Shown here in pieces: positions 21,607-31,271 of a stretch of DNA of 64,000 bases. Positions within the stretch are counted from its first letter, which is position 1; every line of letters begins with the position of its first letter. This DNA comes from Mycobacterium sp. (lineage in GTDB: Bacteria; Actinomycetota; Actinomycetes; Mycobacteriales; Mycobacteriaceae): the NCBI GenBank assembly GCA_020438845.1, contig JAGQTV010000028.1, forward strand, positions 79,192 to 143,191, in the 5' to 3' direction. Made by a program: the position numbers and the translations under genes. The notes beneath the pieces were generated by a model. That model saw only the letters and a list, made by a program, of their open reading frames with translations, did not search any database and was not told the DNA's origin.

Positions 21607-22464
21607 TCATCCCCGACCCTGGGGTAACGGCAATGGTGAATCCCAACACGAACACAGCGGGTGTCGGGGCCACAGCCGGGCCCGGATCGCGTGTGAGGCG
21701 ACGTGAACCTCCCAGGTGGTGTTCCAGGTGGACGGAGGCGGCCCGGCCTGGCCGTTTTGCCGAACGCCGTTGACGATCTTCAGCAGCTGACCCAATGCGA
21801 GCGCGGCGGTGGCCAGTAGCGTCGGCCGGTCAGCGCACCCGACCTCGTGCCGCAGTTGGGCGGCCAGTGCCGGCCAGGCGGCGTCGCGGTCGGCCCGGTG
21901 CAGATCGGCGCACAGCAGACAGCTGGTCACCCCGGGGATGACCAACGGTCCCACCAGGCCGGCGCCGTCGCGCACCCGAACCGCGAGGTGCGGCACCCCG
22001 GCGGCGTGCAGTTCGCGCAGCAGTCTGGGGTCGGGGGCCAGCGCGTCAGTCAGCACCACCAGATCCCCCGCGGACCCGGCGTGGCTGTGGCTGGTTGATG
22101 CCACCCGCGCTCCCGACCGGCGCAGCCCGTCGGTCATCAGTGCCGACAGTGGGCCGTCACCGTGCACCCGGATCGACAGTGTTCGTCCTGGTTTGTTGGC
22201 ACACGTGCGCACCACGCCCCGGCCGGTCAGATCGTCGAGCACCTCATCCAACCCATGCGGGTCGCACAGCCCGTGCCGGGTGGCCAGCCGGTGTAGTTCC
22301 GAGCGCGACGACGGCGAGGACATCTCACGCAGCACCGAGGCCAGACCCGAAGCGGTCAGGCCCGACGGTGGGCGCACCATCACCGCCCGCCGGGGATCCC
22401 AGCCAACCTGCACCGCGCCGTCGGGGCGCAGCAGCACCGGCATAGCGGGGTCGAGTGTCAACAC
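21607..22464 (-). CDS. Rv3196-like protein (E1/ThiF- or TOMM cyclodehydratase-like, function unknown)
   Basis: 285 residues, GTG start (an ATG seven codons later is possible). The N-terminus reads as a small winged-helix-like region. The middle has a Rossmann-like half resembling the cofactor-binding part of ThiF/E1-like or TOMM-associated proteins: DLVVLTDALAPDPRLLRELHAAGVPHLAVRVRDG, then GPLVIPGVTSCLLCADLHRADRD with a CxxC. The last part has CSCW. The CLLC/CSC cysteines could bind zinc. I recall Rv3196 as an uncharacterised orthologue in this position. It ends seven bases before the ABC1 start and is cotranscribed with it. Confidence 0.7.
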   Translation of the reverse strand: MLTLDPAMPVLLRPDGAVQVGWDPRRAVMVRPPSGLTASGLASVLREMSSPSSRSELHRLATRHGLCDPHGLDEVLDDLTGRGVVRTCANKPGRTLSIRVHGDGPLSALMTDGLRRSGARVASTSHSHAGSAGDLVVLTDALAPDPRLLRELHAAGVPHLAVRVRDGAGLVGPLVIPGVTSCLLCADLHRADRDAAWPALAAQLRHEVGCADRPTLLATAALALGQLLKIVNGVRQNGQAGPPPSTWNTTWEVHVASHAIRARLWPRHPLCSCWDSPLPLPQGRG

Positions 22465-22519: not shown

Positions 22520-24928
22520 CTACTGGACGGGTTGGCCGACGCTCAGCGCCCGATCCGTCAGCGCGGCCAGGTAGTGCCAGTACAGGCCGTCGGCGATCGC
22601 CGCCCGTTGGGCTACCGGGTCGGCGGCTGTGTGGCCGGCATAGATGGCGCGTTCTTCCTGATGATCGGCGTAGGCCAACAACGCCTGCAACTGCGCGATC
22701 TCCCGGCCCTCAGCTTCCGACATCATCGGCGCCATCACCGCAAACCACAGATCCGCGGACCGGTCCTCGGGGCTCAAGGCGCTCGCCGGAGCAGCCGGCA
22801 GCAGCTTGACCAGGGCCCTATCCGTGGTGGCGGCTAGGTGGCCGGCATGTTCGGGGGCGATCATCGCCAGCCTGTCTCGGCCGACCATCTGTGAGGTTTG
22901 TGGAATGTCGTCGTTTTCGAGCACCTGGTGGGAGGCCCCGACATCCACTCGATCGAGTTGGTCTTTGGTTCCGATCACCGCGCGCAACTCCACGCCTTGG
23001 GCCTGGGCCCAACCGGCCAGGGCCAACCAGGGACGCGTCGACCAGGACACCCGAGTGGCCAGTGGAACCGAGTCGTCCAGGCTGACGAAGCAGACCTGCT
23101 CCGGGAGATTCTGCCCGGCCGGAAGGTAACCCATTCCAAAGGAATTGGCGACGAGGATACGGCCGTCGGTAGTCAATCCGGTGGCCCAGAAGAAGTTCGG
23201 CACGTGTCGTTCAGGTCGGTCTTGGGCGTTGAGCGCGGCCGCGATCCGGATGGCGAGCGTCAGGGGATCGGCCGCCCCGCCGCGTCGCGCACTCGACGCT
23301 TCGGCGTTGACTGCCTGGAGAACCGCCTCCCGCTCGGCGCGCGCGGCGGTCACCGGAACCGGACCGGCCGCCAGCGTGCTCCCGGCGCCTGGGGCTGCCG
23401 CAGCGGGACTGACTGCCGGACCCGTCATTGGAGCGCCGACCGGTGCGGCGGGCGCCGGTGTGGGCGGTGGTCCCAGGGGTGTCGAGGGTCCGGAGCCGGC
23501 AGGGGGACCCGCCCCGATCGGTGGGCCCGCCATTCCCGCTGGTGCGGGGGTTGTTGGCCCAGTCGTCGGGGTGGCGCCGCCAGCACCCGCCGCCGCGGGG
23601 ACGACTCCGGCGGGCGGGACCGACAACGCACTCCCTCCCGGTGCGGCGGAAGCCGGGGCGGTGGATGCCGCCGGGGGAGCAGCCTGTGCCGCCGCAGCGG
23701 CTGCTGCTGCGGCCGGGTTGGCCAGAGGTGGCGGTGTGCTTTGCGGACCGCCTTGGCCGGCGCCCTGGCCTCCTTGGGCGCCGGAAGTGCCTGTGGGGGA
23801 TTGGGCGCCGTTTGGTGAGCCGGAGATGGGGCTTCCACTGCCTGTCGGAGCTGTCGTTGGCGGGGTACCGTGACTGCCTCCCGGTGAAGACGAACCTGTT
23901 ACGGGAGATGAAGTCGACCCGAGCGATCCCGGCGACAGTCCCGAGGCGCTGCCCAAAGGGGCACCTGCCGATCCTGAGTTGGTGGCGGGCATACTGCCTG
24001 GAAAAGCCCCCGGCATGGCTGGTGTGGACTGCGGCTGAAGGGACGGAGAGGCGCCCGCTCCCGGGTTTTGGGCGGCAAGTGTCGCTTGATGATTGCCGAG
24101 ATTGTCAGCCGATGGTGCTTTGGTGGGTGTTGGGGAGGTGCCGGTCGCGGGTGTCGGCTGTTGATTGCCGAGGCTGTCAGCCGATGGTGCTTTGGTGGGT
24201 GTTGGGGAGGTGCCAGCCGCCGGTGTCGGCTGTTGATTGCCGAGGCTCTCAGCCGATGCAGCTTTGGCTGGAACAGCCTGAGCCCCCGGGATTGAACCCG
24301 TCACGAGCCCCTGGCCAGCCGCCTTTCCGATACCCGGCACGGACCTCGTTGAGGGAGCGGCGAGTTGCTCCGCCGGGAGCGTCTTCCGGTTGCCCGAGAT
24401 CTTGATCAGCTTGTTCATTTCGAATCGCGGTGGTCTGAAATCCACCGGGGCGACGAGCGCGGCGGCGTTGGCCACCACAGCGTGATTCGCGGACTGAGCA
24501 GTCGCAACTGTGCTCTCGAGTTGGGACTCCCAATCTGGGTTGAACGCTTGCGTCGCAAGTATTGCCGAAATATCTGCTTGCGCCGTCTCGACATTGGCAA
24601 CCACCGTTCCTTTGGTCGTGACTACCGCTGCTGTGGTGGCCCTGTACCAGAGGATTGCTTTAGCCAAATCGTGCTGCTGATCACGCAAGGAAGCGATCAC
24701 TTCGGTGACTTTCACCGCTGCCGCCTCGGCCGCTGACCCCGACCAGGTCTCCGAAGTAAATAATTCGGCCTGCTCGTGCGCCCAGGATTCTAAGACTAAT
24801 GTGACTTGACGCAATTTCTCTGCCAAGGTCTGCGCGCGATCACTCAATGTGTCTTCATCGACCTCGGGCCAGGCCCCGTTGGATAACATTTCCTCGGCAT
24901 ATTGGCCCGTAGGCCTGGCGACTCCCAC
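22520..24928 (-). CDS. large ESX-associated protein: WXG/PPE-like helical N-domain, Pro/Ala/Gly linker, EspK/Rv3899c-like C-domain
   Basis: 802 residues, GTG start with GGAAGGG five bases upstream. Residues 1-165 are helical with a WSG turn at 62-64 (ETWSGSAAEAA), as in type VII secretion substrates. Residues ~190-530 are low complexity, rich in Pro, Ala, Gly, Ser and Thr, with a ~24-residue tandem repeat (PTPTKAPSADSLGNQQ). The globular C-terminus (~560-802, with FFWATGLTTDGRILVANSFG and WSTRPWLALAGWAQ) resembles the DUF5631/DUF5632-type end of Rv3899c and EspK-like proteins; this is from memory. EspK acts as a chaperone/escort in ESX-1. It lies two bases after a membrane-anchored protein gene and opposite an espACD-like operon. 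The 5' half has lower GC than the core genes. Confidence 0.72.
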   Translation of the reverse strand: MGVARPTGQYAEEMLSNGAWPEVDEDTLSDRAQTLAEKLRQVTLVLESWAHEQAELFTSETWSGSAAEAAAVKVTEVIASLRDQQHDLAKAILWYRATTAAVVTTKGTVVANVETAQADISAILATQAFNPDWESQLESTVATAQSANHAVVANAAALVAPVDFRPPRFEMNKLIKISGNRKTLPAEQLAAPSTRSVPGIGKAAGQGLVTGSIPGAQAVPAKAASAESLGNQQPTPAAGTSPTPTKAPSADSLGNQQPTPATGTSPTPTKAPSADNLGNHQATLAAQNPGAGASPSLQPQSTPAMPGAFPGSMPATNSGSAGAPLGSASGLSPGSLGSTSSPVTGSSSPGGSHGTPPTTAPTGSGSPISGSPNGAQSPTGTSGAQGGQGAGQGGPQSTPPPLANPAAAAAAAAAQAAPPAASTAPASAAPGGSALSVPPAGVVPAAAGAGGATPTTGPTTPAPAGMAGPPIGAGPPAGSGPSTPLGPPPTPAPAAPVGAPMTGPAVSPAAAAPGAGSTLAAGPVPVTAARAEREAVLQAVNAEASSARRGGAADPLTLAIRIAAALNAQDRPERHVPNFFWATGLTTDGRILVANSFGMGYLPAGQNLPEQVCFVSLDDSVPLATRVSWSTRPWLALAGWAQAQGVELRAVIGTKDQLDRVDVGASHQVLENDDIPQTSQMVGRDRLAMIAPEHAGHLAATTDRALVKLLPAAPASALSPEDRSADLWFAVMAPMMSEAEGREIAQLQALLAYADHQEERAIYAGHTAADPVAQRAAIADGLYWHYLAALTDRALSVGQPVQ
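24093..24260 (-). repeat. in-frame tandem repeat (~72 bp unit) in the EspK-like linker
   Basis: Two nearly identical ~72-bp units plus a diverged third encode about 24 residues each (the core tctcccaacacccacc-type segment recurs with few changes). The unit is in frame, lengthening the Pro/Thr linker. It is likely to vary in copy number. Confidence 0.8.
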
Positions 24929-24930
24929 AC

Positions 24931-26040
24931 TTACCCTTCCACTGCGAGGCAGGCAGCGCTAACAACGGCGCCGATGCTCTGAGCCGCAGCGTATAGTTCG
25001 GCATCCTGCACTGAGAAGGTTGGGATTCCACTCGCATACGTCCGGTAATACTGAGCCGACAACGCCAAAAAATCTCCAATCACGGGGTTTCCTCCCGATT
25101 TTCCAATCTCCTCTATCTGGTCAGCGCGCTCAGCCAGGACCTGAGCTGCGTTTTCCCAAATCAGCTTGTCGGTCGGACTCCACTGTTCGGCAGGAACGTT
25201 GTCAAGTTTTAGCCACTCCCCAAGCTTGGCATCATCGCTCTTGTTCTGAGACCGCAATCTTGCGCAGACTGGTGAAGGGGCGGTTAGGAACCATGGTGCC
25301 TCGGCTGGATCATCCACTCGGGCAGCTTCAGTTGGCTGCGCCGCCGCTGAGGATGGCGAATACCGCTTTGCTGCAGAGAGATTGGTAATTGAACTGCAGA
25401 TGTGAAGCAAAGCGCCGCTGATGTTGTTTCCAACAACAGCGAAGGCATTGTCGCTCGGCTTGTAGGAGGGGATGGCGTCAGCGTATGAGCGGTAATAGGC
25501 AATGAGTTGTTCATAGAGTTCCCGCATGACTCGGTGGGGAGTCTCCCGTGCAAGAGGCACCGTGTGGTCGATCTGGGAGCGCAGCACGCGGCCTGCGGAT
25601 TCGTAAATCTGGCGCTGCTCCGGAGTCCATGCAGACACCGGGATCGAATCGTCACGCTGACCCCACGCTTCAAGTTGGGAACTGCTGTTGCTCAAGAGCG
25701 CCAACCACCGATCACACGTCGGGTCCTCCGTGATGATCCCCACCGGCCCAGTGTCATTCGCGCTGGCGATCTCTCCGCTGGACCTCTGCGAACTCCCAGA
25801 CGAGCCAGCCTGATTCCCCGGCCCCCGGTGGGTAACCCACACCGTCGCAGCAACACTAACCGCGATGACCGCCAAGAACGCCAAGGCGAGCAGGATCCAC
25901 CGCAGGTTTCCGCGAGGAGGCCCAGGTGGGGGACCGGGTTGTGGCCAGGATCCTGGTGGATAGGGCCCTGGCCCTTGCGGACCAGGCCAGGGGGCGCCAG
26001 TAGGTGGCTGGCCGCCCGGCGGCAGAACAGGGCCGCTCAC
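24931..26040 (-). CDS. Pro-rich, single-pass membrane protein with a duplicated extracytoplasmic domain
   Basis: 369 residues, GTG start. Residues 1-44 are Pro/Gly-rich and cytoplasmic. One helix spans ~46-70 (LRWILLALAFLAVIAVSVAATVWV). Two copies of one ~110-residue helical domain follow outside the membrane: copy 1 from about CDRWLALLSN to LLHICSSI, copy 2 from CARLRSQNK to VVSAACLAV. Both share a first Cys, a W(T/S)P block, YY RSYADAIP versus YYRTYASGIP, and a last Cys, so each copy likely has a disulfide. I do not recognise the family. It is the first gene of the minus-strand operon of the ESX-substrate island and is coupled to the EspK-like gene (two-base gap). Confidence 0.7.
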   Translation of the reverse strand: MSGPVLPPGGQPPTGAPWPGPQGPGPYPPGSWPQPGPPPGPPRGNLRWILLALAFLAVIAVSVAATVWVTHRGPGNQAGSSGSSQRSSGEIASANDTGPVGIITEDPTCDRWLALLSNSSSQLEAWGQRDDSIPVSAWTPEQRQIYESAGRVLRSQIDHTVPLARETPHRVMRELYEQLIAYYRSYADAIPSYKPSDNAFAVVGNNISGALLHICSSITNLSAAKRYSPSSAAAQPTEAARVDDPAEAPWFLTAPSPVCARLRSQNKSDDAKLGEWLKLDNVPAEQWSPTDKLIWENAAQVLAERADQIEEIGKSGGNPVIGDFLALSAQYYRTYASGIPTFSVQDAELYAAAQSIGAVVSAACLAVEG

Positions 26041-26220
26041 CGCTGATTTCCCTGGCCACTACCGCCCACAGAACGTCTCCCTTACGCACCCACCGACCAC
26101 CAACGCGACGCCAGGGTCGCGACAGCTATCTAGTCTAAATAGCGTTCCCGCGATCTGGGCCCGGCAGTTTGGGCACAGTGCGCAGGGATCAGCGCGAGAG
26201 GTCCGGAAGGGTGGTGGCAT
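26041..26220. promoter_or_regulatory. divergent regulatory region of the ESX-substrate island with a 19-bp near-palindrome
   Basis: 180 bases between the two island operons. At 26125-26143, GCTATCTAG and CTAAATAGC are inverted around a single T with one mismatch in nine pairs, and the element is more AT-rich than its surroundings. It lies 85 bases from the minus-strand start and 78 from the plus-strand start, so one regulator could control both operons. Ribosome binding site GGAAGGGTGG precedes the plus-strand GTG. Confidence 0.55.
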
Positions 26221-27195
26221 GTGACAGGCGGTTCTGACGGCGGTTTGGGCGGCATTGGAGACATCGCCGACCTCTTCGAAGGCGTCAAAAGTGGCATCGA
26301 GCATTCAGGCGAGCTCATCGGCGACATCGGTTCCGGTCATTTTGGCGAGGCGTTGGACGACGGCGTCTCCGTCGTGCGCGACGTTGGAGGAATTCTTGAG
26401 TCCTTGGGCGGCCTGGGAGTGCACTACGGCAAGGTGGCCACGAAGTATGTGGACAAGCTCGTTCCACTCGCGGAGTCGAAAATTCTCTCGGCGGCGCAGC
26501 TGCTGATCGACGGTGCGAAGTACACCACCGGCGAGGGTGATCCTGACCCAGGGGACGGTTTCAAAGATGCGGCGGACCGCTTACAGGGGGTTGTCGAAGT
26601 TCTGATCGATGCGAACAGGCATGAGGATCGCTGGGATGGTGCAGCAGCGGAAGCGTACGAAAGCACTAATCACGACCACCGGGTAGCGACGTCGGCAGCC
26701 CAGGCGGCCGACGAACGCATCGCCAAGATCTTGGCCGGGGAAGCCGACCAGGTCGTTCGCACCCGGGAGAATCTCGACGGGCTCTCAGAGGGACTGCATG
26801 AATTCGATCTGGCCACAATGTGGATGAACTATGTACCGGGTGGAGCGGCTGCCAAGGCGGCTATGGATACCACCGCCGCCGCTGGGGCTACCGCAGCGAT
26901 GCAGGCCACCATGCTGAGCCTTTTCCAAGCCTCCGTCAGCAATGCAGCGCAGATCCGGCAAAGCACTAATGATTACGACCCAGCACTCAAGGACCACACG
27001 GGTGATGGTCGGCTTTGCGGCAGTGACATCTTCGTCAAACAGAACGAAGATCTTGAAAGACTTCCAACCCGATTGAAGTCGAACGCACCCTACGAGCTGC
27101 CCGCACCGGAGGAACCGCCGCAGTGGGGACCACCGGCGCAGCCCCTACCGGCGCCCGGCACCACGGCTCCGCCACCGGCGAGGGGACAGCGATGA
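26221..27195 (+). CDS. EspA/EspE-like ESX secretion substrate
   Basis: 324 residues, GTG start. An amphipathic N-terminal half is followed by a helical hairpin whose turn is a WxG motif: EDRWDGAAAEAYESTN (WDG at 138-140). The helix AADERIAKILAGEADQVVRTRENLDG and the stretch MNYVPGGAAAKAAM follow. The same order (GDGWLGSAADKYAGKN, then RQLISLIHDQANAVQTTRDIL) is found in EspA, so EspA/EspE family membership is well supported. A Cys (RLCGSD) and a Pro-rich tail (ELPAPEEPPQWGPP) close the protein. EspA is co-secreted with EspC by ESX-1. Its stop overlaps the EspC-like start (ATGA). Lacks a signal peptide, as expected of a type VII substrate. Confidence 0.82.
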   Translation: MTGGSDGGLGGIGDIADLFEGVKSGIEHSGELIGDIGSGHFGEALDDGVSVVRDVGGILESLGGLGVHYGKVATKYVDKLVPLAESKILSAAQLLIDGAKYTTGEGDPDPGDGFKDAADRLQGVVEVLIDANRHEDRWDGAAAEAYESTNHDHRVATSAAQAADERIAKILAGEADQVVRTRENLDGLSEGLHEFDLATMWMNYVPGGAAAKAAMDTTAAAGATAAMQATMLSLFQASVSNAAQIRQSTNDYDPALKDHTGDGRLCGSDIFVKQNEDLERLPTRLKSNAPYELPAPEEPPQWGPPAQPLPAPGTTAPPPARGQR

Positions 27196-27515
27196 GCGAC
27201 GGTGAAATGAACTTGCGGGTGGTCACCGAGCACCTCCTCCACTTGTCGGAGAAGCAATCACGTGCGGCCGACAAGCTCATTGGGGCTAATCGGGCGGTGT
27301 CCGGCGTCGCGGAGGCGGTCGCGAGCACTCACGGTGTCGCCTGCAGTCTGACCAACCAAGCCGTCACCGAGGCCGTTTCCCGGCGGGCCGCGGCGGGTGA
27401 GAATCTGCGCAAGGTATCGACCGAGTTGGATGAGAAGCTCAAATCCGCGGCGGGCAACTACGCCAATGCCGACTATATGGCCGGCAAGAGCATCGACAAC
27501 GAGTGCAGCATGTGA
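27192..27515 (+). CDS. EspC/EspF-like ESX secretion-associated protein (DUF2580)
   Basis: 107 residues, ATG overlapping the previous stop. Size and pattern match EspC/EspF: an N-terminal MNLRVVTEHLLHLSEKQSRAADKL helix, a Gly/Ser/Thr turn (STHGVACSLTNQ), and a second helix RRAAAGENLRKVSTELDEKLKSAAGNYANAD. The YxxxD/E-type secretion signal fits YANADYMAG near the C-terminus. EspC-type proteins are WXG100-like and needed for secretion of their EspA partner. The neighbour on each side is the expected EspA and EspD-like partner. Confidence 0.82.
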   Translation: MSDGEMNLRVVTEHLLHLSEKQSRAADKLIGANRAVSGVAEAVASTHGVACSLTNQAVTEAVSRRAAAGENLRKVSTELDEKLKSAAGNYANADYMAGKSIDNECSM

Positions 27516-28027
27516 CCGATTCAACGACCCACGATGCGTGGGATGACGACGAGGATGACGAGGACGACTTCGACCGAAATGATGTCGCCGATGCTTTCGC
27601 CGGGTACCTGCCGCCGGTACGCCCCGATGACGCTGTCGACGCCTCGGACGACGACAGCGTCTCAACGCTGCTCTGCACAGCCAGCAATCCGCCCGGCACG
27701 GTATCGGCGACGGCGCTGTTAAGCGGACGGATTCTCGACGTCGAGTTCTCACCGGAAGCCGCCCGGATGACAGGCCGGGAACTAGCGGAAGAGATCAGAA
27801 GTGTTGCTGCTCTTGCAAACCAGCAAGCCAGGGCGGCCCAGCACGCGGTCATGGCGACGTTGATGGACCGCCTCGGGAAGGATCCCGCCGAAACTCGCAG
27901 CTTTCTCGAACGCGAGCTGGGGCTGCCTTCGCCGGAATCGGTGAACGCGGCACGCGCCCAATCGCTCGCGGCTCATTACGCGGGTGACAGTGAGCATTTC
28001 GAGGGCGGTTCCGGTGACGAACAGTAA
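27512..28027 (+). CDS. EspD/EspH-like protein
   Basis: 171 residues, GTG start within the upstream stop (GTGA). A very acidic N-terminus (DAWDDDEDDEDDFDRND) leads to a YbaB/EbfC-like core: NPPGTVSATALLSGRILDVEFSPEAARMTGRELAEEI followed by a helix rich in Ala/Arg (NQQARAAQHAVM) and LERELGLPSPESVNAA. EspH (Rv3867) and EspD (Rv3614c) have the same acidic start, N-P-x-G-x-V-S and LP(S/T)PE features. EspD stabilises EspA and EspC in the cytosol. This completes an espACD-like unit. Confidence 0.82.
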   Translation: MTDSTTHDAWDDDEDDEDDFDRNDVADAFAGYLPPVRPDDAVDASDDDSVSTLLCTASNPPGTVSATALLSGRILDVEFSPEAARMTGRELAEEIRSVAALANQQARAAQHAVMATLMDRLGKDPAETRSFLERELGLPSPESVNAARAQSLAAHYAGDSEHFEGGSGDEQ

Positions 28028-29420
28028 TACCGAGCCGATGCCAACCGAACGCCGAAGGTGGCCGCTTATCGCCGCGGTATTGGCAGTCGTCCTGCTGGTC
28101 GTGGTGGCGGTGCTGGTGTTCGGCTGGCCCCGAAGGGTTGGTGGTCTGGCGATCGGCCCGCGCCCGGCGTGGCAGCCGCCGCCCCAGACGCAGCTCAGTT
28201 CGTCGATGCATGTCCCGCCGGTACCGGGCTGGCGGCTTCGCGCAACAGACCTCGGCTTGCCGACGCGGTTTGCCACGAGCGATGATCCACAGTTCGCCGA
28301 CCCCTTCATCGGAAACGTTGACAACCATGCCTATTTCCTTGCGGGTAGTTCCGCTGCCACCGGTACCCAATGGTGGCTGACAGGGGTCGATGTCGACAGC
28401 GGTCAGTCGATGTTCAAACCGGTGCCGTTGAATACCGGCCAAAGGGCGCCGCAGTGTTTCCTCAATGGCCCGGCAGCAGTGCTGTGCGTCGACGATGAGC
28501 GCCAACGCTCCCGGGCTTGGGTGATTGACGTTCCCTCTGGCCGGGAATCCTACTCGGGGCCAACCGATTTACGTACCTTTGGAGCATCCCTCCGGGTCAA
28601 GCAAATCGGCATCTATGCCGTCGCCGACACGTCGGATCAGGGAATATATGGCGTTGGGGCTAAAGCGGAGACAACCTGGTTCGTTCCGGGCGACGGGTCG
28701 GCGCAGTACCGTTATATGCCGGATGATTTTGCGCCACAGACCATCTCGACTCAGGCAGGTCTGGGACGCGCGACCGATCGCATGGTGGTATTCCGCGTTA
28801 CCGATGGCCATGTGTTCGAACCGGTTATGCCCGAAGGCACAAGTCCCGGTTCGGCTGCGGTATATCCAGGAGGATTTGCCGTCGAAATTCTCGATGACAG
28901 TGTAGGCGGGACGCGCGGAGGGGTGAACTTCTATGACGATGACGGTAAACTGCTGGGGCATATCGACTCTGGCAGCTCTCGTGGGTATCTGAAAAGCGGC
29001 GCGGTCGATTTGCCGATGGTGAAAGCAGGCCGGGAGTCAACCGTTTACAGCATCGATGGCACCGATCTGGTTCACATCCAGGACATTTCGGACGAGTTGC
29101 TGATCGGCAGCCGGCTGTTCTATGAGGCGCTGAACGTCGAACAATACGACCTCAGCACGGGTAAACAGGTTGAACCCTGCAAGTTCGGGTACGCACATTC
29201 GACCTACGTTGCTACTGACGGTGTTGTAGGACTGTTCCGAACGGGTGGACAGAAAATCGGGATGGAAACCTATGGTCTCGACTTGGCGACATGCACGACA
29301 CTGTGGACGAGGACGTCTCCTCCCGGCGCCTTCCACTACCTGTGGCGGATCAACACCACACTGGTTCAATTATCCGACGATGCAACCGAACTGATGTCGC
29401 TCGTCGCGCCGCAAAGCTGA
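28014..29420 (+). CDS. membrane-anchored extracytoplasmic propeller-like protein, copy 1
   Basis: 468 residues from GTG 28014 (GAGGGCGG upstream), overlapping the EspD-like gene end by 14 bases. A short basic N-terminus and one helix (WPLIAAVLAVVLLVVVAVLVFGW) anchor a ~430-residue extracytoplasmic domain. The domain repeats short strand motifs: WWLTGVDVDSGQSM, AWVIDVPSGRESYSG, YSIDGTDLVHIQD, YDLSTGKQVEPCKF, YGLDLATCTTLWTR. A VDxxSG/YDLxTG pattern suggests a PQQ- or WD-like beta-propeller. Five or so cysteines may form disulfides. I do not know a characterised homologue. The operon position behind espACD-like genes suggests a cell-envelope role in, or sensing for, ESX export. Confidence 0.72.
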   Translation: MTNSNTEPMPTERRRWPLIAAVLAVVLLVVVAVLVFGWPRRVGGLAIGPRPAWQPPPQTQLSSSMHVPPVPGWRLRATDLGLPTRFATSDDPQFADPFIGNVDNHAYFLAGSSAATGTQWWLTGVDVDSGQSMFKPVPLNTGQRAPQCFLNGPAAVLCVDDERQRSRAWVIDVPSGRESYSGPTDLRTFGASLRVKQIGIYAVADTSDQGIYGVGAKAETTWFVPGDGSAQYRYMPDDFAPQTISTQAGLGRATDRMVVFRVTDGHVFEPVMPEGTSPGSAAVYPGGFAVEILDDSVGGTRGGVNFYDDDGKLLGHIDSGSSRGYLKSGAVDLPMVKAGRESTVYSIDGTDLVHIQDISDELLIGSRLFYEALNVEQYDLSTGKQVEPCKFGYAHSTYVATDGVVGLFRTGGQKIGMETYGLDLATCTTLWTRTSPPGAFHYLWRINTTLVQLSDDATELMSLVAPQS

Positions 29421-29430
29421 AGCCGTCAGG

Positions 29431-30831
29431 ATGACTGCACATAACACCGTTTCCCGCGGAAAACGCCGTAGTTGGCCTCTGATCGTCGCCGTGTTGGCGG
29501 TTGTTCTGATGGTTGTGCTGGCGATGGTGGTGTTTGGCTGGACCCGGGCCGGTGTTCTGGGGATCGGCCCGCGCCCGGCATGGCAGCCCCCGCCGCAGAC
29601 TCGACTCAGTTCGTCGATGCATGTCCCGCCGGTTCCGGGCTGGCGGCTCCGCGCGAGCAACCTCGGATTACCGACTCGGTTCGCCACGAGCGATGATCCG
29701 CAGTTCGCCGACCCGTTCATCGGCAACGTGGACAACCATGCTTACTTCCTTGCCGGTAGCCCCACTGCCACCGGTACCCAGTGGTGGGTTGCTGGGATCG
29801 ATGTCGAGAGTGGTAAGTCGATGTTCAAACCGGTCCCGTTGAACATCGCCCCGTGGGCGCCGCAGTGTTTTCTCAATGGCCCGACAGCCCTGCTGTGCAT
29901 CGACTTCGACGGCCACCGCTCACAGGCGTGGGTGATCGACGTCCCAGCCGGTCGTCAATCCTTCTCGGGGCCAACTGATTTGCGCACCATCGCTGGGCAC
30001 CTCGAGGTCAAACAGATCGGCATTTATGCTGTTGCTCAGACCTCGGGCCAGGGTGTCTACGGTATCGGCCCCAAAGCGCAGACGACGTGGTTCGTTCCCG
30101 GCGCTGGGTCGGCGGATTACCGATTCATGCCGGACGATTTTGCGCCGCAGACTCTTGTCACCCAGAACGCTCTCGGTCGCGGGGCCACCCGCATGGTGGT
30201 TTTCCGCGTCAGTGATGGCCACGTGTTCGAACCGGTTATGCCCGAAGGCGCGAATGCCGGTTCGGCAGCGGTGTATCCAGGCGGATTTGCGCTCGAAGTA
30301 CGCGACGACCGTCCCGGCGGAAGGCTGGTCGGGGTGAACTTCTATGACGACGATGGTAAACAGCTAGGGCACATCGACTCTGCCGGTTCCGGTGGCTCGC
30401 TACAACCGGGTGCTGTCGATCTCCCGATCGTGGAATCAGGAAGGGATGCGACGGTGTACAGCGCCGACGGCACGGCGCTGGCTCAGATACAGGACAATTC
30501 GGACGAACTACTGATCGGCGATCGGCTCTTCTTCGAAGCATTCAACGTCGAACAGTATGACCTGAGCACGGGCACCAGGGTTGAACCCTGCAAGTTCGGA
30601 TACGCACAGTCCTCCTACGTTGGGACCGACGGTGTCGTAGGCGTCTTCGAAAAAGGCGGACGCAAGGTCGCGATGAAAACCTATGGGCTCGACTTGGCGA
30701 CCTGCAAGACCCTGTGGACGACGACCTCGCGCCGCGATGCCTTCCATTACCTGTGGCGGGTCAACACCACGTTGGTTCAGCTCTCCGAGGATGCAACCGA
30801 ACTGATGTCGCTGGTGGCTCCGCGCAGCTGA
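29431..30831 (+). CDS. membrane-anchored extracytoplasmic propeller-like protein, copy 2 (tandem paralogue)
   Basis: 466 residues, ATG start ten bases after copy 1. Colinear with copy 1 along the full length: same anchor, then IGPRPAWQPPPQT and SSSMHVPPVPGWRLRA, with most residues shared in the N-terminal 130, and the same final VAPRS/VAPQS. DNA similarity is also high, so the duplication is fairly recent. Divergence concentrates in the YSxDGT to YDLSTG loops and around residues 255-275. The tandem arrangement suggests either a heteromer or paralogues tuned to different ligands. Function unknown. Confidence 0.72.
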   Translation: MTAHNTVSRGKRRSWPLIVAVLAVVLMVVLAMVVFGWTRAGVLGIGPRPAWQPPPQTRLSSSMHVPPVPGWRLRASNLGLPTRFATSDDPQFADPFIGNVDNHAYFLAGSPTATGTQWWVAGIDVESGKSMFKPVPLNIAPWAPQCFLNGPTALLCIDFDGHRSQAWVIDVPAGRQSFSGPTDLRTIAGHLEVKQIGIYAVAQTSGQGVYGIGPKAQTTWFVPGAGSADYRFMPDDFAPQTLVTQNALGRGATRMVVFRVSDGHVFEPVMPEGANAGSAAVYPGGFALEVRDDRPGGRLVGVNFYDDDGKQLGHIDSAGSGGSLQPGAVDLPIVESGRDATVYSADGTALAQIQDNSDELLIGDRLFFEAFNVEQYDLSTGTRVEPCKFGYAQSSYVGTDGVVGVFEKGGRKVAMKTYGLDLATCKTLWTTTSRRDAFHYLWRVNTTLVQLSEDATELMSLVAPRS

Positions 30832-30852
30832 GCGAGGAACCCACCGGGAGGG

Positions 30853-30896
30853 CTTTTCGAAAGCCGATATCACCGGTGATAGCGGATTTCGAGAAG
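30853..30896. repeat. 44-bp palindromic repeat, copy A (between convergent genes)
   Basis: Two 22-base arms meet at a CACC/GGTG centre (left CTTTTCGAAAGCCGATATC..., right mirrored with three mismatches). Outer element CTTnTCGAAA and inner GATATC(A/G)CC are shared with the copies at 38604 and 58831. It lies between the stop of the propeller-like paralogue and the stop of the M15-like gene. Confidence 0.85.
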
Positions 30897-30920
30897 CATT
30901 ACCGGGTCCAATAGCCCCGC

Positions 30921-31271
30921 TCAGACGACCGTGACGTGGACGTGGTTGAAGTGGCCCGCCACCCGCCACATCGTGTACTTGACGCCGAAACGGTCCGCCT
31001 GACTTTGGACGTCTGCGTTGATGGCATCACCGAGGCCCATGTCCGAGCCGATCATGATGTCCAGTGCGTGGCCGCTGGGGTGATCAGGGCGCGAATCCGA
31101 ACGCACGCCACCAATGGACTGAACACCGGGGTAGGTAGCCGCGAGGTACTGGTCGAGAGTGGAGGCGTTGGGGCACAGACCGTTCATCCCCACCTGGGGC
31201 ATGGCGCTCGCCGTCGCTGATGACGTTGCAACCCAGCCGGCGGTGATCGTCGCTAGCACAATCGCTTTCAT
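30921..31271 (-). CDS. small secreted M15-like (D-Ala-D-Ala carboxypeptidase fold) protein
   Basis: 116 residues. Signal peptide MKAIVLATITAGWVATSSATASA. The zinc-binding pattern of the VanY/hedgehog-type M15 fold is visible: DHPSGHALDIMI (His64, Asp71) and HFNHVHVTV (His110, His112). An N-terminal Cys (GLCPNAS) follows the signal peptide. M15 proteins cut peptidoglycan peptides; this compact single-domain form recurs in mycobacteria, where its substrate is unproved. It is convergent with the propeller-like pair and is the right-hand edge of the accessory island. Confidence 0.75.
   Translation of the reverse strand: MKAIVLATITAGWVATSSATASAMPQVGMNGLCPNASTLDQYLAATYPGVQSIGGVRSDSRPDHPSGHALDIMIGSDMGLGDAINADVQSQADRFGVKYTMWRVAGHFNHVHVTVV

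What the first reader, a model, noticed from the sequence alone, without database searches (positions are those of the whole stretch)
22520..31271. Accessory island with an espACD-like trio, EspK-like protein and two new envelope families
Between Rv3196-like and Rv3195-like core genes sits an 8.7-kb block absent from H37Rv by my recollection. The plus operon is EspA-, EspC- and EspD/H-like, coupled by overlapping stops and starts, followed by two anchored propeller-like proteins. The minus operon holds an EspK/Rv3899c-like protein and a duplicated-domain membrane protein. This looks like a self-contained ESX substrate/escort unit with its own extracytoplasmic parts but without ESX core genes. 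It may redirect an existing ESX system to new substrates.
Basis: partly seen in the sequence, partly recalled or inferred. Interest (0 to 1): 0.82.

Follow-up and report, generated by a model that had tools for sequence, protein, structure and literature searches.

The report
Relocated mycobacterial ESX-1 self-identity island
This stretch of a mycobacterial chromosome holds displaced parts of the ESX-1 protein-export system: a relative of a protein that lets mycobacteria tell self from non-self during mating, its export escort, and a separate four-gene set of exported proteins, chaperone and surface protein whose job is unknown.

Summary
The block is real and its ORFs sit where stated. A is an EspK homologue (phmmer 2.9e-63 to PDB 8ako). 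C and D hit Pfam EspA_EspE and EspC; E is EspH/EspD-like. B is not new: it belongs to the Msmeg0070 (Mid, self-identity) family, and B-A corresponds to the mid pair Msmeg0070-0071, found between eccD1 and eccE1/mycP1 in part of the ESX-1 loci. An unnamed M. smegmatis-like genome carries a B homologue whose length, proline count, membrane segment and spacing match published Msmeg0070; window B aligns with it over 393 columns (35%). C-D-E-F is a separate, recurrent four-gene module (18 of 36 other F loci fetched); its E proteins form one clade. F/G is one uncharacterised anchored family that recurs beside other type VII substrate-like genes; "propeller" is unsupported (structure prediction never ran). 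The host's ESX-1 genes are split over several contigs, so the block is best read as a displaced ESX-1 satellite, not a unit redirecting another system. Against strict ESX-1 dependence: 5 of 18 cassette genomes lack EccCb1, and 12 of 20 fetched B loci show no ESX-1 core gene. Function (identity tag plus exported pair) is inferred, not shown.

The parts
22520..24928 (-). A: EspK-family protein (Msmeg0071-like): WxG N-terminal region, Pro-rich linker, conserved C-terminal domain
   Evidence: phmmer E 2.9e-63 to PDB 8ako_B EspK over residues 554-796; WSG at 62; Pro-rich middle; C-terminal homologues in 109 of 198 genus genomes
24931..26040 (-). B: Msmeg0070 (Mid, self-identity) family: Pro-rich N-terminus, one membrane segment, two Cys-paired domains that are duplicates of each other
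   Evidence: 35% over 393 columns, 206 bits (pairwise E 2.4e-67), to the G077 protein with Msmeg0070's published numbers; duplication; invariant Cys 109/215 and 259/364
26041..26220 (.). 180-bp intergenic region between the divergent B-A and C-G gene groups; possible shared control region
   Evidence: consensus promoter scan of the block at chance level (2 found, mean 1.7 in shuffles, none in this stretch)
26221..27195 (+). C: EspA/EspE-family protein with WxG (WDG at 138)
   Evidence: Pfam PF18879 E 1.5e-17
27189..27515 (+). D: EspC-family protein with C-terminal YxxxD (YANAD)
   Evidence: Pfam PF10824 E 4e-22; motif
27503..28027 (+). E: EspH/EspD-like (YbaB-like) putative chaperone
   Evidence: Pfam YbaB 2e-4, below cut-off; phmmer to the host's EspH-position gene 8e-19; clade of F-linked E proteins, support 99/98
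27984..29420 (+). F: anchored, presumably extracytoplasmic protein of an uncharacterised family, 4 invariant Cys (start codon uncertain)
   Evidence: homologues in 46 of 198 genomes; invariant columns in 39 members; N-terminal hydrophobic segment in 35 of 39
29431..30831 (+). G: tandem paralogue of F, 75% identical
30921..31271 (-). H: small, probably secreted protein with a GH..D / HNHVH motif (peptidase-like, recalled); flank gene, probably not part of either module
   Evidence: no Pfam or NCBIfam hit; an 88% identical fragment of 24 codons at the end of sister locus L151

Best explanation
The block is a displaced satellite of the host's ESX-1 system made of two modules. Module 1 (B-A) is a second-site copy of the mid pair Msmeg0070-Msmeg0071: B is an inner-membrane-anchored protein whose two disulfide-paired domains face outward and act as an identity tag in cell contact or conjugation; A is its linked EspK-type escort, which brings a substrate to the ESX-1 ATPase. 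Module 2 (C-D-E-F/G) exports an EspA-EspC-type pair (WxG on C, YxxxD on D) kept stable by chaperone E; F/G are anchored on the outer face and receive or hold the exported pair. Shown by sequence: family memberships, gene order, recurrence of both modules, split ESX-1 genes in the host. Inferred: export by ESX-1, topology, the identity role, and F as partner of C-D.
For: An EspK-type gene adjoins B in 18 of 29 other B loci. B-A lies between eccD1 and eccE/mycP-like genes in 6 of 20 fetched B loci, beside eccD1 in 2 more, and B is in 21 of 80 named MycP1 loci. G077 B: 388 aa, 41 Pro, best hydrophobic 19-mer 71-89, 31 nt after the preceding gene, against published 388 aa, 41/388 Pro, TM 67-89, 32 nt. 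A tracks MycP1 (102 of 105 A genomes). C-D-E-F together at 18 of 36 fetched F loci, 12 of the 18 at one site; E proteins one clade 99/98. F-like genes also stand beside EspC-like and WXG-like genes. Host ESX-1 pieces: espE-like to eccCb1 on C25, PE to eccD1 on C112, mycP1-eccE1 and two further genes on C62. Against the sister at the same site, B (65%) and the A N-terminal part (47%) and linker (49%) are less conserved than the A C-terminal part (72%), the TOMM-like neighbour (73%) and abc1 (92%), the order reported for mid.
Against: Five of 18 full-cassette genomes lack EccCb1, four of them MycP1 too, so the cassette is not tied to ESX-1; G154 shows only two EccC genes, in ESX-3-like and ESX-4-like surroundings. 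Twelve of 20 fetched B loci show no ESX-1 core hit in the fetched stretch, and 22 of 94 B genomes lack MycP1. The TOMM-like core neighbour is itself only 73% identical to the sister, so the excess divergence of B is modest; within-species variation was not tested. No Msmeg0069-like gene precedes B here. PMC9040860 reports that mid identity remains in esx1 mutants. The lysine that EspK of M. tuberculosis needs for EspB binding is Ala in A, though it is Lys in only 34 of 57 homologues. No structure could be predicted. Kin recognition has been shown for one member of the B family.
Confidence: 0.45

Rival explanations
1. Ordinary dispersed ESX-1 accessory genes: A-B and C-E are plain substrate-chaperone paralogues with a secretion role only; no identity function.
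For: A tracks MycP1 almost perfectly; the host's ESX-1 genes are split in general; two B-A pairs in the genome.
Against: B belongs to the family in which a self-identity phenotype was shown; B occurs without A and without ESX-1; B and the A N-terminal part are less conserved than their neighbours, though modestly.
Confidence: 0.32
2. One reading: a self-contained substrate/escort unit that redirects another ESX (here the ESX-2-like system, elsewhere ESX-3 or ESX-4) to new substrates.
For: C-D-E-F open in genomes without EccCb1 or MycP1, one with only ESX-3-like and ESX-4-like EccC genes.
Against: A-B lies inside ESX-1 loci in part of the genomes; the host has ESX-1-type EccCab, EccD and MycP genes.
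Confidence: 0.13
3. A hitch-hiking or decaying variable-gene hotspot between two core genes with no joint function.
For: Sister genome has B-A pairs and a RES/Xre-like pair at what seems this site; no cassette was seen on its two fetched contigs; the B tree mixes locations; F copies with a stop inside exist elsewhere.
Against: All block ORFs are open with coupled starts; the modules recur as units.
Confidence: 0.1

Closest known systems
mid genes Msmeg0069-0071 of the M. smegmatis esx1 locus (PMC9040860, PMC3706393; passages read)
   Same: B = Msmeg0070 family; A = Msmeg0071-like (variable N-terminal part, conserved C-terminal domain); same order
   Different: Located outside ESX-1, no Msmeg0069-like gene before B, second pair on another contig, next to a C-D-E-F cassette. 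The paper already notes that in some species 0069-0070 orthologues lie elsewhere in the genome
EspK (Rv3879c; PDB 8ako; PMC9811218, passages read)
   Same: C-terminal domain homologous along its length, WxG N-terminal region, Pro-rich linker
   Different: EspB-contact lysine is Ala; not beside espB
espACD and espE-espF-espH (PMC6107294, passages read)
   Same: EspA/E-like, EspC/F-like and YbaB-like chaperone trio
   Different: E of the cassette is a separate clade; tied to membrane-anchored F, which I recall from no described esp operon

Membership tests
Msmeg0070 (Mid self-identity) family | sequence homology to Msmeg0070 | tested here: met
   35% over 393 columns, 206 bits, to the G077 protein, which matches Msmeg0070's published length, Pro count, membrane segment and spacing; Msmeg0070's own letters were not available
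Msmeg0070 (Mid self-identity) family | about 380 aa, Pro-rich N-terminus, one membrane segment | tested here: met
   369 aa, 38 Pro, hydrophobic 49-67
Msmeg0070 (Mid self-identity) family | followed by a gene with variable N-terminal part and conserved C-terminal domain (Msmeg0071) | tested here: met
   A directly follows; 47% against 72% identity with the sister
Msmeg0070 (Mid self-identity) family | preceded by Msmeg0069 | tested here: not met
   C is divergent; a 0069-like gene lies on C112 behind eccD1. A feature of the locus, not of the family
Msmeg0070 (Mid self-identity) family | highly polymorphic between strains | tested here: inconclusive
   only one sister genome compared: B 65%, TOMM-like neighbour 73%, abc1 92%
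Msmeg0070 (Mid self-identity) family | sets conjugal self-identity | not testable with these tools
   needs crosses
EspK | EspK C-terminal domain | tested here: met
   2.9e-63 to 8ako_B
EspK | WxG in N-terminal region and low-complexity linker | tested here: met
   WSG at 62; Pro-rich residues 200-500
EspK | EspB-binding residues F659/K663 (M. tuberculosis numbering) | tested here: inconclusive
   Phe kept, Lys is Ala; Lys in 34 of 57 homologues
EspA/EspC-type secreted pair | EspA_EspE and EspC domains, WxG on one and YxxxD/E on the other | tested here: met
EspA/EspC-type secreted pair | secretion by ESX-1 | not testable with these tools
   EccCb1 in 13 of 18 cassette genomes
EspD/EspH chaperones | YbaB-like domain and EspH homology | tested here: met
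   phmmer 8e-19 to the host's EspH-position gene; Pfam YbaB only 2e-4, below cut-off; in one group with the two EspH rows, support 89/81
beta-propeller (F/G) | repeat blades or match to a propeller family | tested here: inconclusive
   no significant PDB or Pfam match, no internal repeat by hhalign; structure jobs failed

The most novel reading that the evidence does not exclude
The block is a second, movable self-identity locus: B-A plus the C-D-E-F/G module together form a contact-dependent recognition apparatus, in which the ESX-exported C-D pair is the signal and F/G or B the surface receptor, with alleles swapped by site and lineage as in kin-recognition systems.
Probability: 0.15. Interest if true: 0.85.

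Novelty: new variant of a known kind. Interest (0 to 1): 0.6.

Why it matters
Mycobacterial self-identity is known from one gene in one species, for which no similar protein was reported (PMC9040860, passages read). Placing B in that family shows a duplicated Cys-paired domain, a frequent partner of EspK type (18 of 29 loci), spread over half of 396 sampled genus genomes, copies on plasmids and repeated changes of place in the B tree. It also defines a four-gene EspA-C-D-like module with an unstudied anchored protein that recurs beside other type VII substrate-like genes, so both can be tested by simple gene removals.

Tried and rejected
Rejected: B as an unknown new family (it is Msmeg0070-like); two different anchored families F and G (one family); the block's families as unique to this genome; C-D-E as simply the host's espE-F-H (separate E clade).

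Led nowhere: NCBIfam and PDB profile searches for F and B and Pfam scans of their members (scattered weak hits only); internal repeats in F; promoter and terminator scan at chance level; paper searches for a propeller beside EspA (listing of 10 seen) and for sae genes (none found). Structure prediction was accepted, polled until, and failed, so no fold search was made. M. smegmatis itself was not among the 80 named loci. Distribution of F outside the genus was not obtained (one search failed). The empty site was not examined.
Full report
What is there. The eight ORFs of the block are at the stated places. The plus genes overlap end to start: C/D at 27189-27195, D/E at 27503-27515, E/F at 27984-28027 if F starts at the first GTG. 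G is a 75% identical tandem copy of F. The minus genes B and A are 2 bp apart. B and C are divergent across 180 bp. GC falls to 56% in 24500-25499, against 66-71% in the flanks and mostly 58-64% in the rest of the block beyond it.

Identity of the minus pair. Residues 554-796 of A match PDB 8ako chain B, EspK, with E 2.9e-63. A also has a WxG near its N-terminus and a Pro-rich middle, the architecture described for EspK in PMC9811218 (passages read). B has no Pfam family. It has a Pro-rich N-terminus, one hydrophobic segment at 49-67 and two homologous halves (hhalign 99.7%, E 4.8e-27), each with two invariant cysteines across 55 members.

B is in 198 of 396 genus genomes. An EspK-type gene adjoins it in 18 of 29 other B loci, 17 with the A start directly after B and one with A before it. 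Of 20 B loci fetched with wider flanks, 6 have eccD1 on one side and eccE- or mycP-like genes on the other, 2 have eccD1 alone, and 12 show no ESX-1 core hit. Of 80 named loci fetched around MycP1, 21 contain B, among them M. wolinskyi, M. senegalense, M. septicum and M. chubuense. M. simulans and M. gastri show A but no B in the fetched stretch.

The ESX-1 place and the order are those of the mid genes of M. smegmatis. PMC9040860 (passages read) describes Msmeg0070 as 388 aa, 41 prolines, membrane segment 67-89, starting 32 nt after Msmeg0069, and shows that it sets conjugal self-identity. Its B homologue in that place is 388 aa from its ATG with 41 prolines, best hydrophobic 19-mer 71-89, 31 nt after the preceding gene. 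Window B aligns with it over 393 columns at 35%, 206 bits (the E-value 2.4e-67 is for that pair alone). I take B as a member of that family and A as the Msmeg0071 counterpart. The paper does not use the name EspK (0 occurrences), and one further search found no other paper holding three of the four terms mid genes, Msmeg0070, EspK, mycobacteri.

Identity of the plus module. C hits EspA_EspE (1.5e-17) and D hits EspC (4e-22); C has WDG and D has YANAD. E hits YbaB weakly and the host gene in EspH position by phmmer (8e-19). PMC6107294 (passages read) reports EspH as YbaB-like and proposes EspH and EspD as chaperones of such pairs. C-D-E-F occur together at 18 of the 36 F loci that I fetched, in 17 genomes besides the window; one search listed more F matches than I fetched. 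Twelve of the 18 carry ethA-, dinB- and polX-like genes (names recalled) beside the cassette, and in 8 of these 12 gltD-gltB were seen on the other side; the other six lack these markers, one of them on a 3.5-kb contig. The 18 F-linked E proteins (window included) form one clade, support 99/98, outside the two EspH rows. So this is a distinct module of its own.

F beyond the module. F has an N-terminal hydrophobic segment in 35 of 39 members and a lipobox-like motif in 6, with four invariant cysteines. F-like genes without C-D-E in L066, L069, L070, L071, L073 and L261 stand beside a small protein and a W.G protein that look alike from locus to locus. Of these I scanned two loci: the small proteins hit EspC (2.5e-5 over and 1.3e-4 just under cut-off), the W.G proteins WXG100 (2.2e-3 and 2.2e-4, under cut-off), and neighbours in L076 and L261 hit YbaB. 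F therefore seems to go with type VII substrate-like genes in general. The propeller idea has no support from profile searches or repeats, and structure prediction could not be completed.

The host. This genome has two EccCa hits over cut-off and two EccD hits. ESX-1-type genes lie on C25 (espE-like to eccCb1), C112 (PE to eccD1 and a 0069-like gene), C62 (mycP1, eccE1 and two downstream genes that look like espB and espL), C3 (this window) and C23 (second B-A pair); gene names other than EccC, EccD and MycP1 are by eye or by pairwise match. The breaks on C25, C112 and C62 are inside contigs, but the assembly is a draft of 118 contigs. In the sister genome G347 one B-A pair is at the window's site, where its contig ends; another lies on a 4.6-kb contig with a RES/Xre-like pair and a 24-codon end fragment of H. 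In the B tree the window copy pairs with the first (99/88) and the C23 copy with the second (100/94). Identities to the sister are abc1 92%, TOMM-like 73%, A C-terminal part 72%, B 65%, A linker 49%, A N-terminal part 47%. The order fits the mid pattern (variable 0070 and 0071 N-terminus), but the gap between B and the TOMM-like neighbour is small.

Dependence on ESX-1. In 198 genomes (lists copied by hand; no correction for kinship) A goes with MycP1 in 102 of 105, B in 72 of 94, F in 32 of 42 strong matches, the full cassette in 14 of 18 (p 0.046); the cassette goes with B in 15 of 18 (p 0.002). Cassette status is known only for genomes whose F locus I fetched. EccCb1 at 74% identity or more is in 13 of 18 cassette genomes; G035, G152, G154, G159 and G197 lack it, and G035 does have MycP1. 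G154 shows only two EccC genes, in ESX-3-like and ESX-4-like surroundings (types judged by gene order). So A is ESX-1 bound; B and the cassette are not strictly so.

Mechanism. The best reading is a displaced ESX-1 satellite. E keeps the C-D pair ready; the YxxxD of D and the WxG of C give the export signal; F/G hold or receive it outside. A escorts a substrate, possibly the EspB-like protein encoded on C62, although its EspB-contact lysine is Ala (Lys in 34 of 57 homologues). B displays an identity tag. The memberships, order and recurrence are shown; transport, topology and function are inferred. B copies on a plasmid of Mycolicibacterium sp. TY66 and a near-equal one of TY81 would fit an exclusion-like role but do not show it.

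Verdict. Real and more interesting than a bare island, but composed of known kinds: the self-identity family in a new setting plus a new ESX accessory module.

Noticed in passing
own genome C25, C112, C62, C110, C1 (L059, L060, L079, L248, L061, L080): ESX-1 and a second ESX (ESX-2-like by recall) both look broken between eccC and the PE gene, inside contigs; two EccCa hits over cut-off and two EccD hits were all that was found, so no ESX-3 or ESX-4 was detected.
   Followed up: partly
L066, L069, L070, L071, L073, L261: Second recurrent arrangement of F-like genes with an EspC-like and a WXG-like gene; near purS/purQ-like genes (recalled) in L070, L071, L073, L261; lipobox-like start in L070, L071, L073; YbaB-like plus eccC/eccB-like neighbours in L261.
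   Followed up: partly
L263 (plasmid pTY66_01 127892-152725): Two tandem B genes annotated as hypothetical proteins, near an annotated type VII secretion target and a RES/MbcA-type pair; no EspK match in the stretch.
   Followed up: partly
L151 (sister G347:C168): RES/Xre-like toxin-antitoxin pair next to a B-A pair at what seems the same chromosomal site (named by eye from the sequence).
   Followed up: no
L139 9282-10418, L140 9332-10432: B variants with an acidic instead of a Pro-rich N-terminus in genomes without MycP1, beside an aspS-like gene (recalled) and a PE-PPE-Esx group.
   Followed up: partly
L127, L128, L129, L156, L206: Several B genes in one stretch; nine B matches in genome G049.
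   Followed up: no
L076 2346-8129: Very long protein with a WXG-like start next to F-like and YbaB-like genes; looks like a polymorphic effector; not analysed.
   Followed up: no
window 21607-22464: TOMM-type (TIGR03882, below cut-off) protein flanking the block.
   Followed up: no
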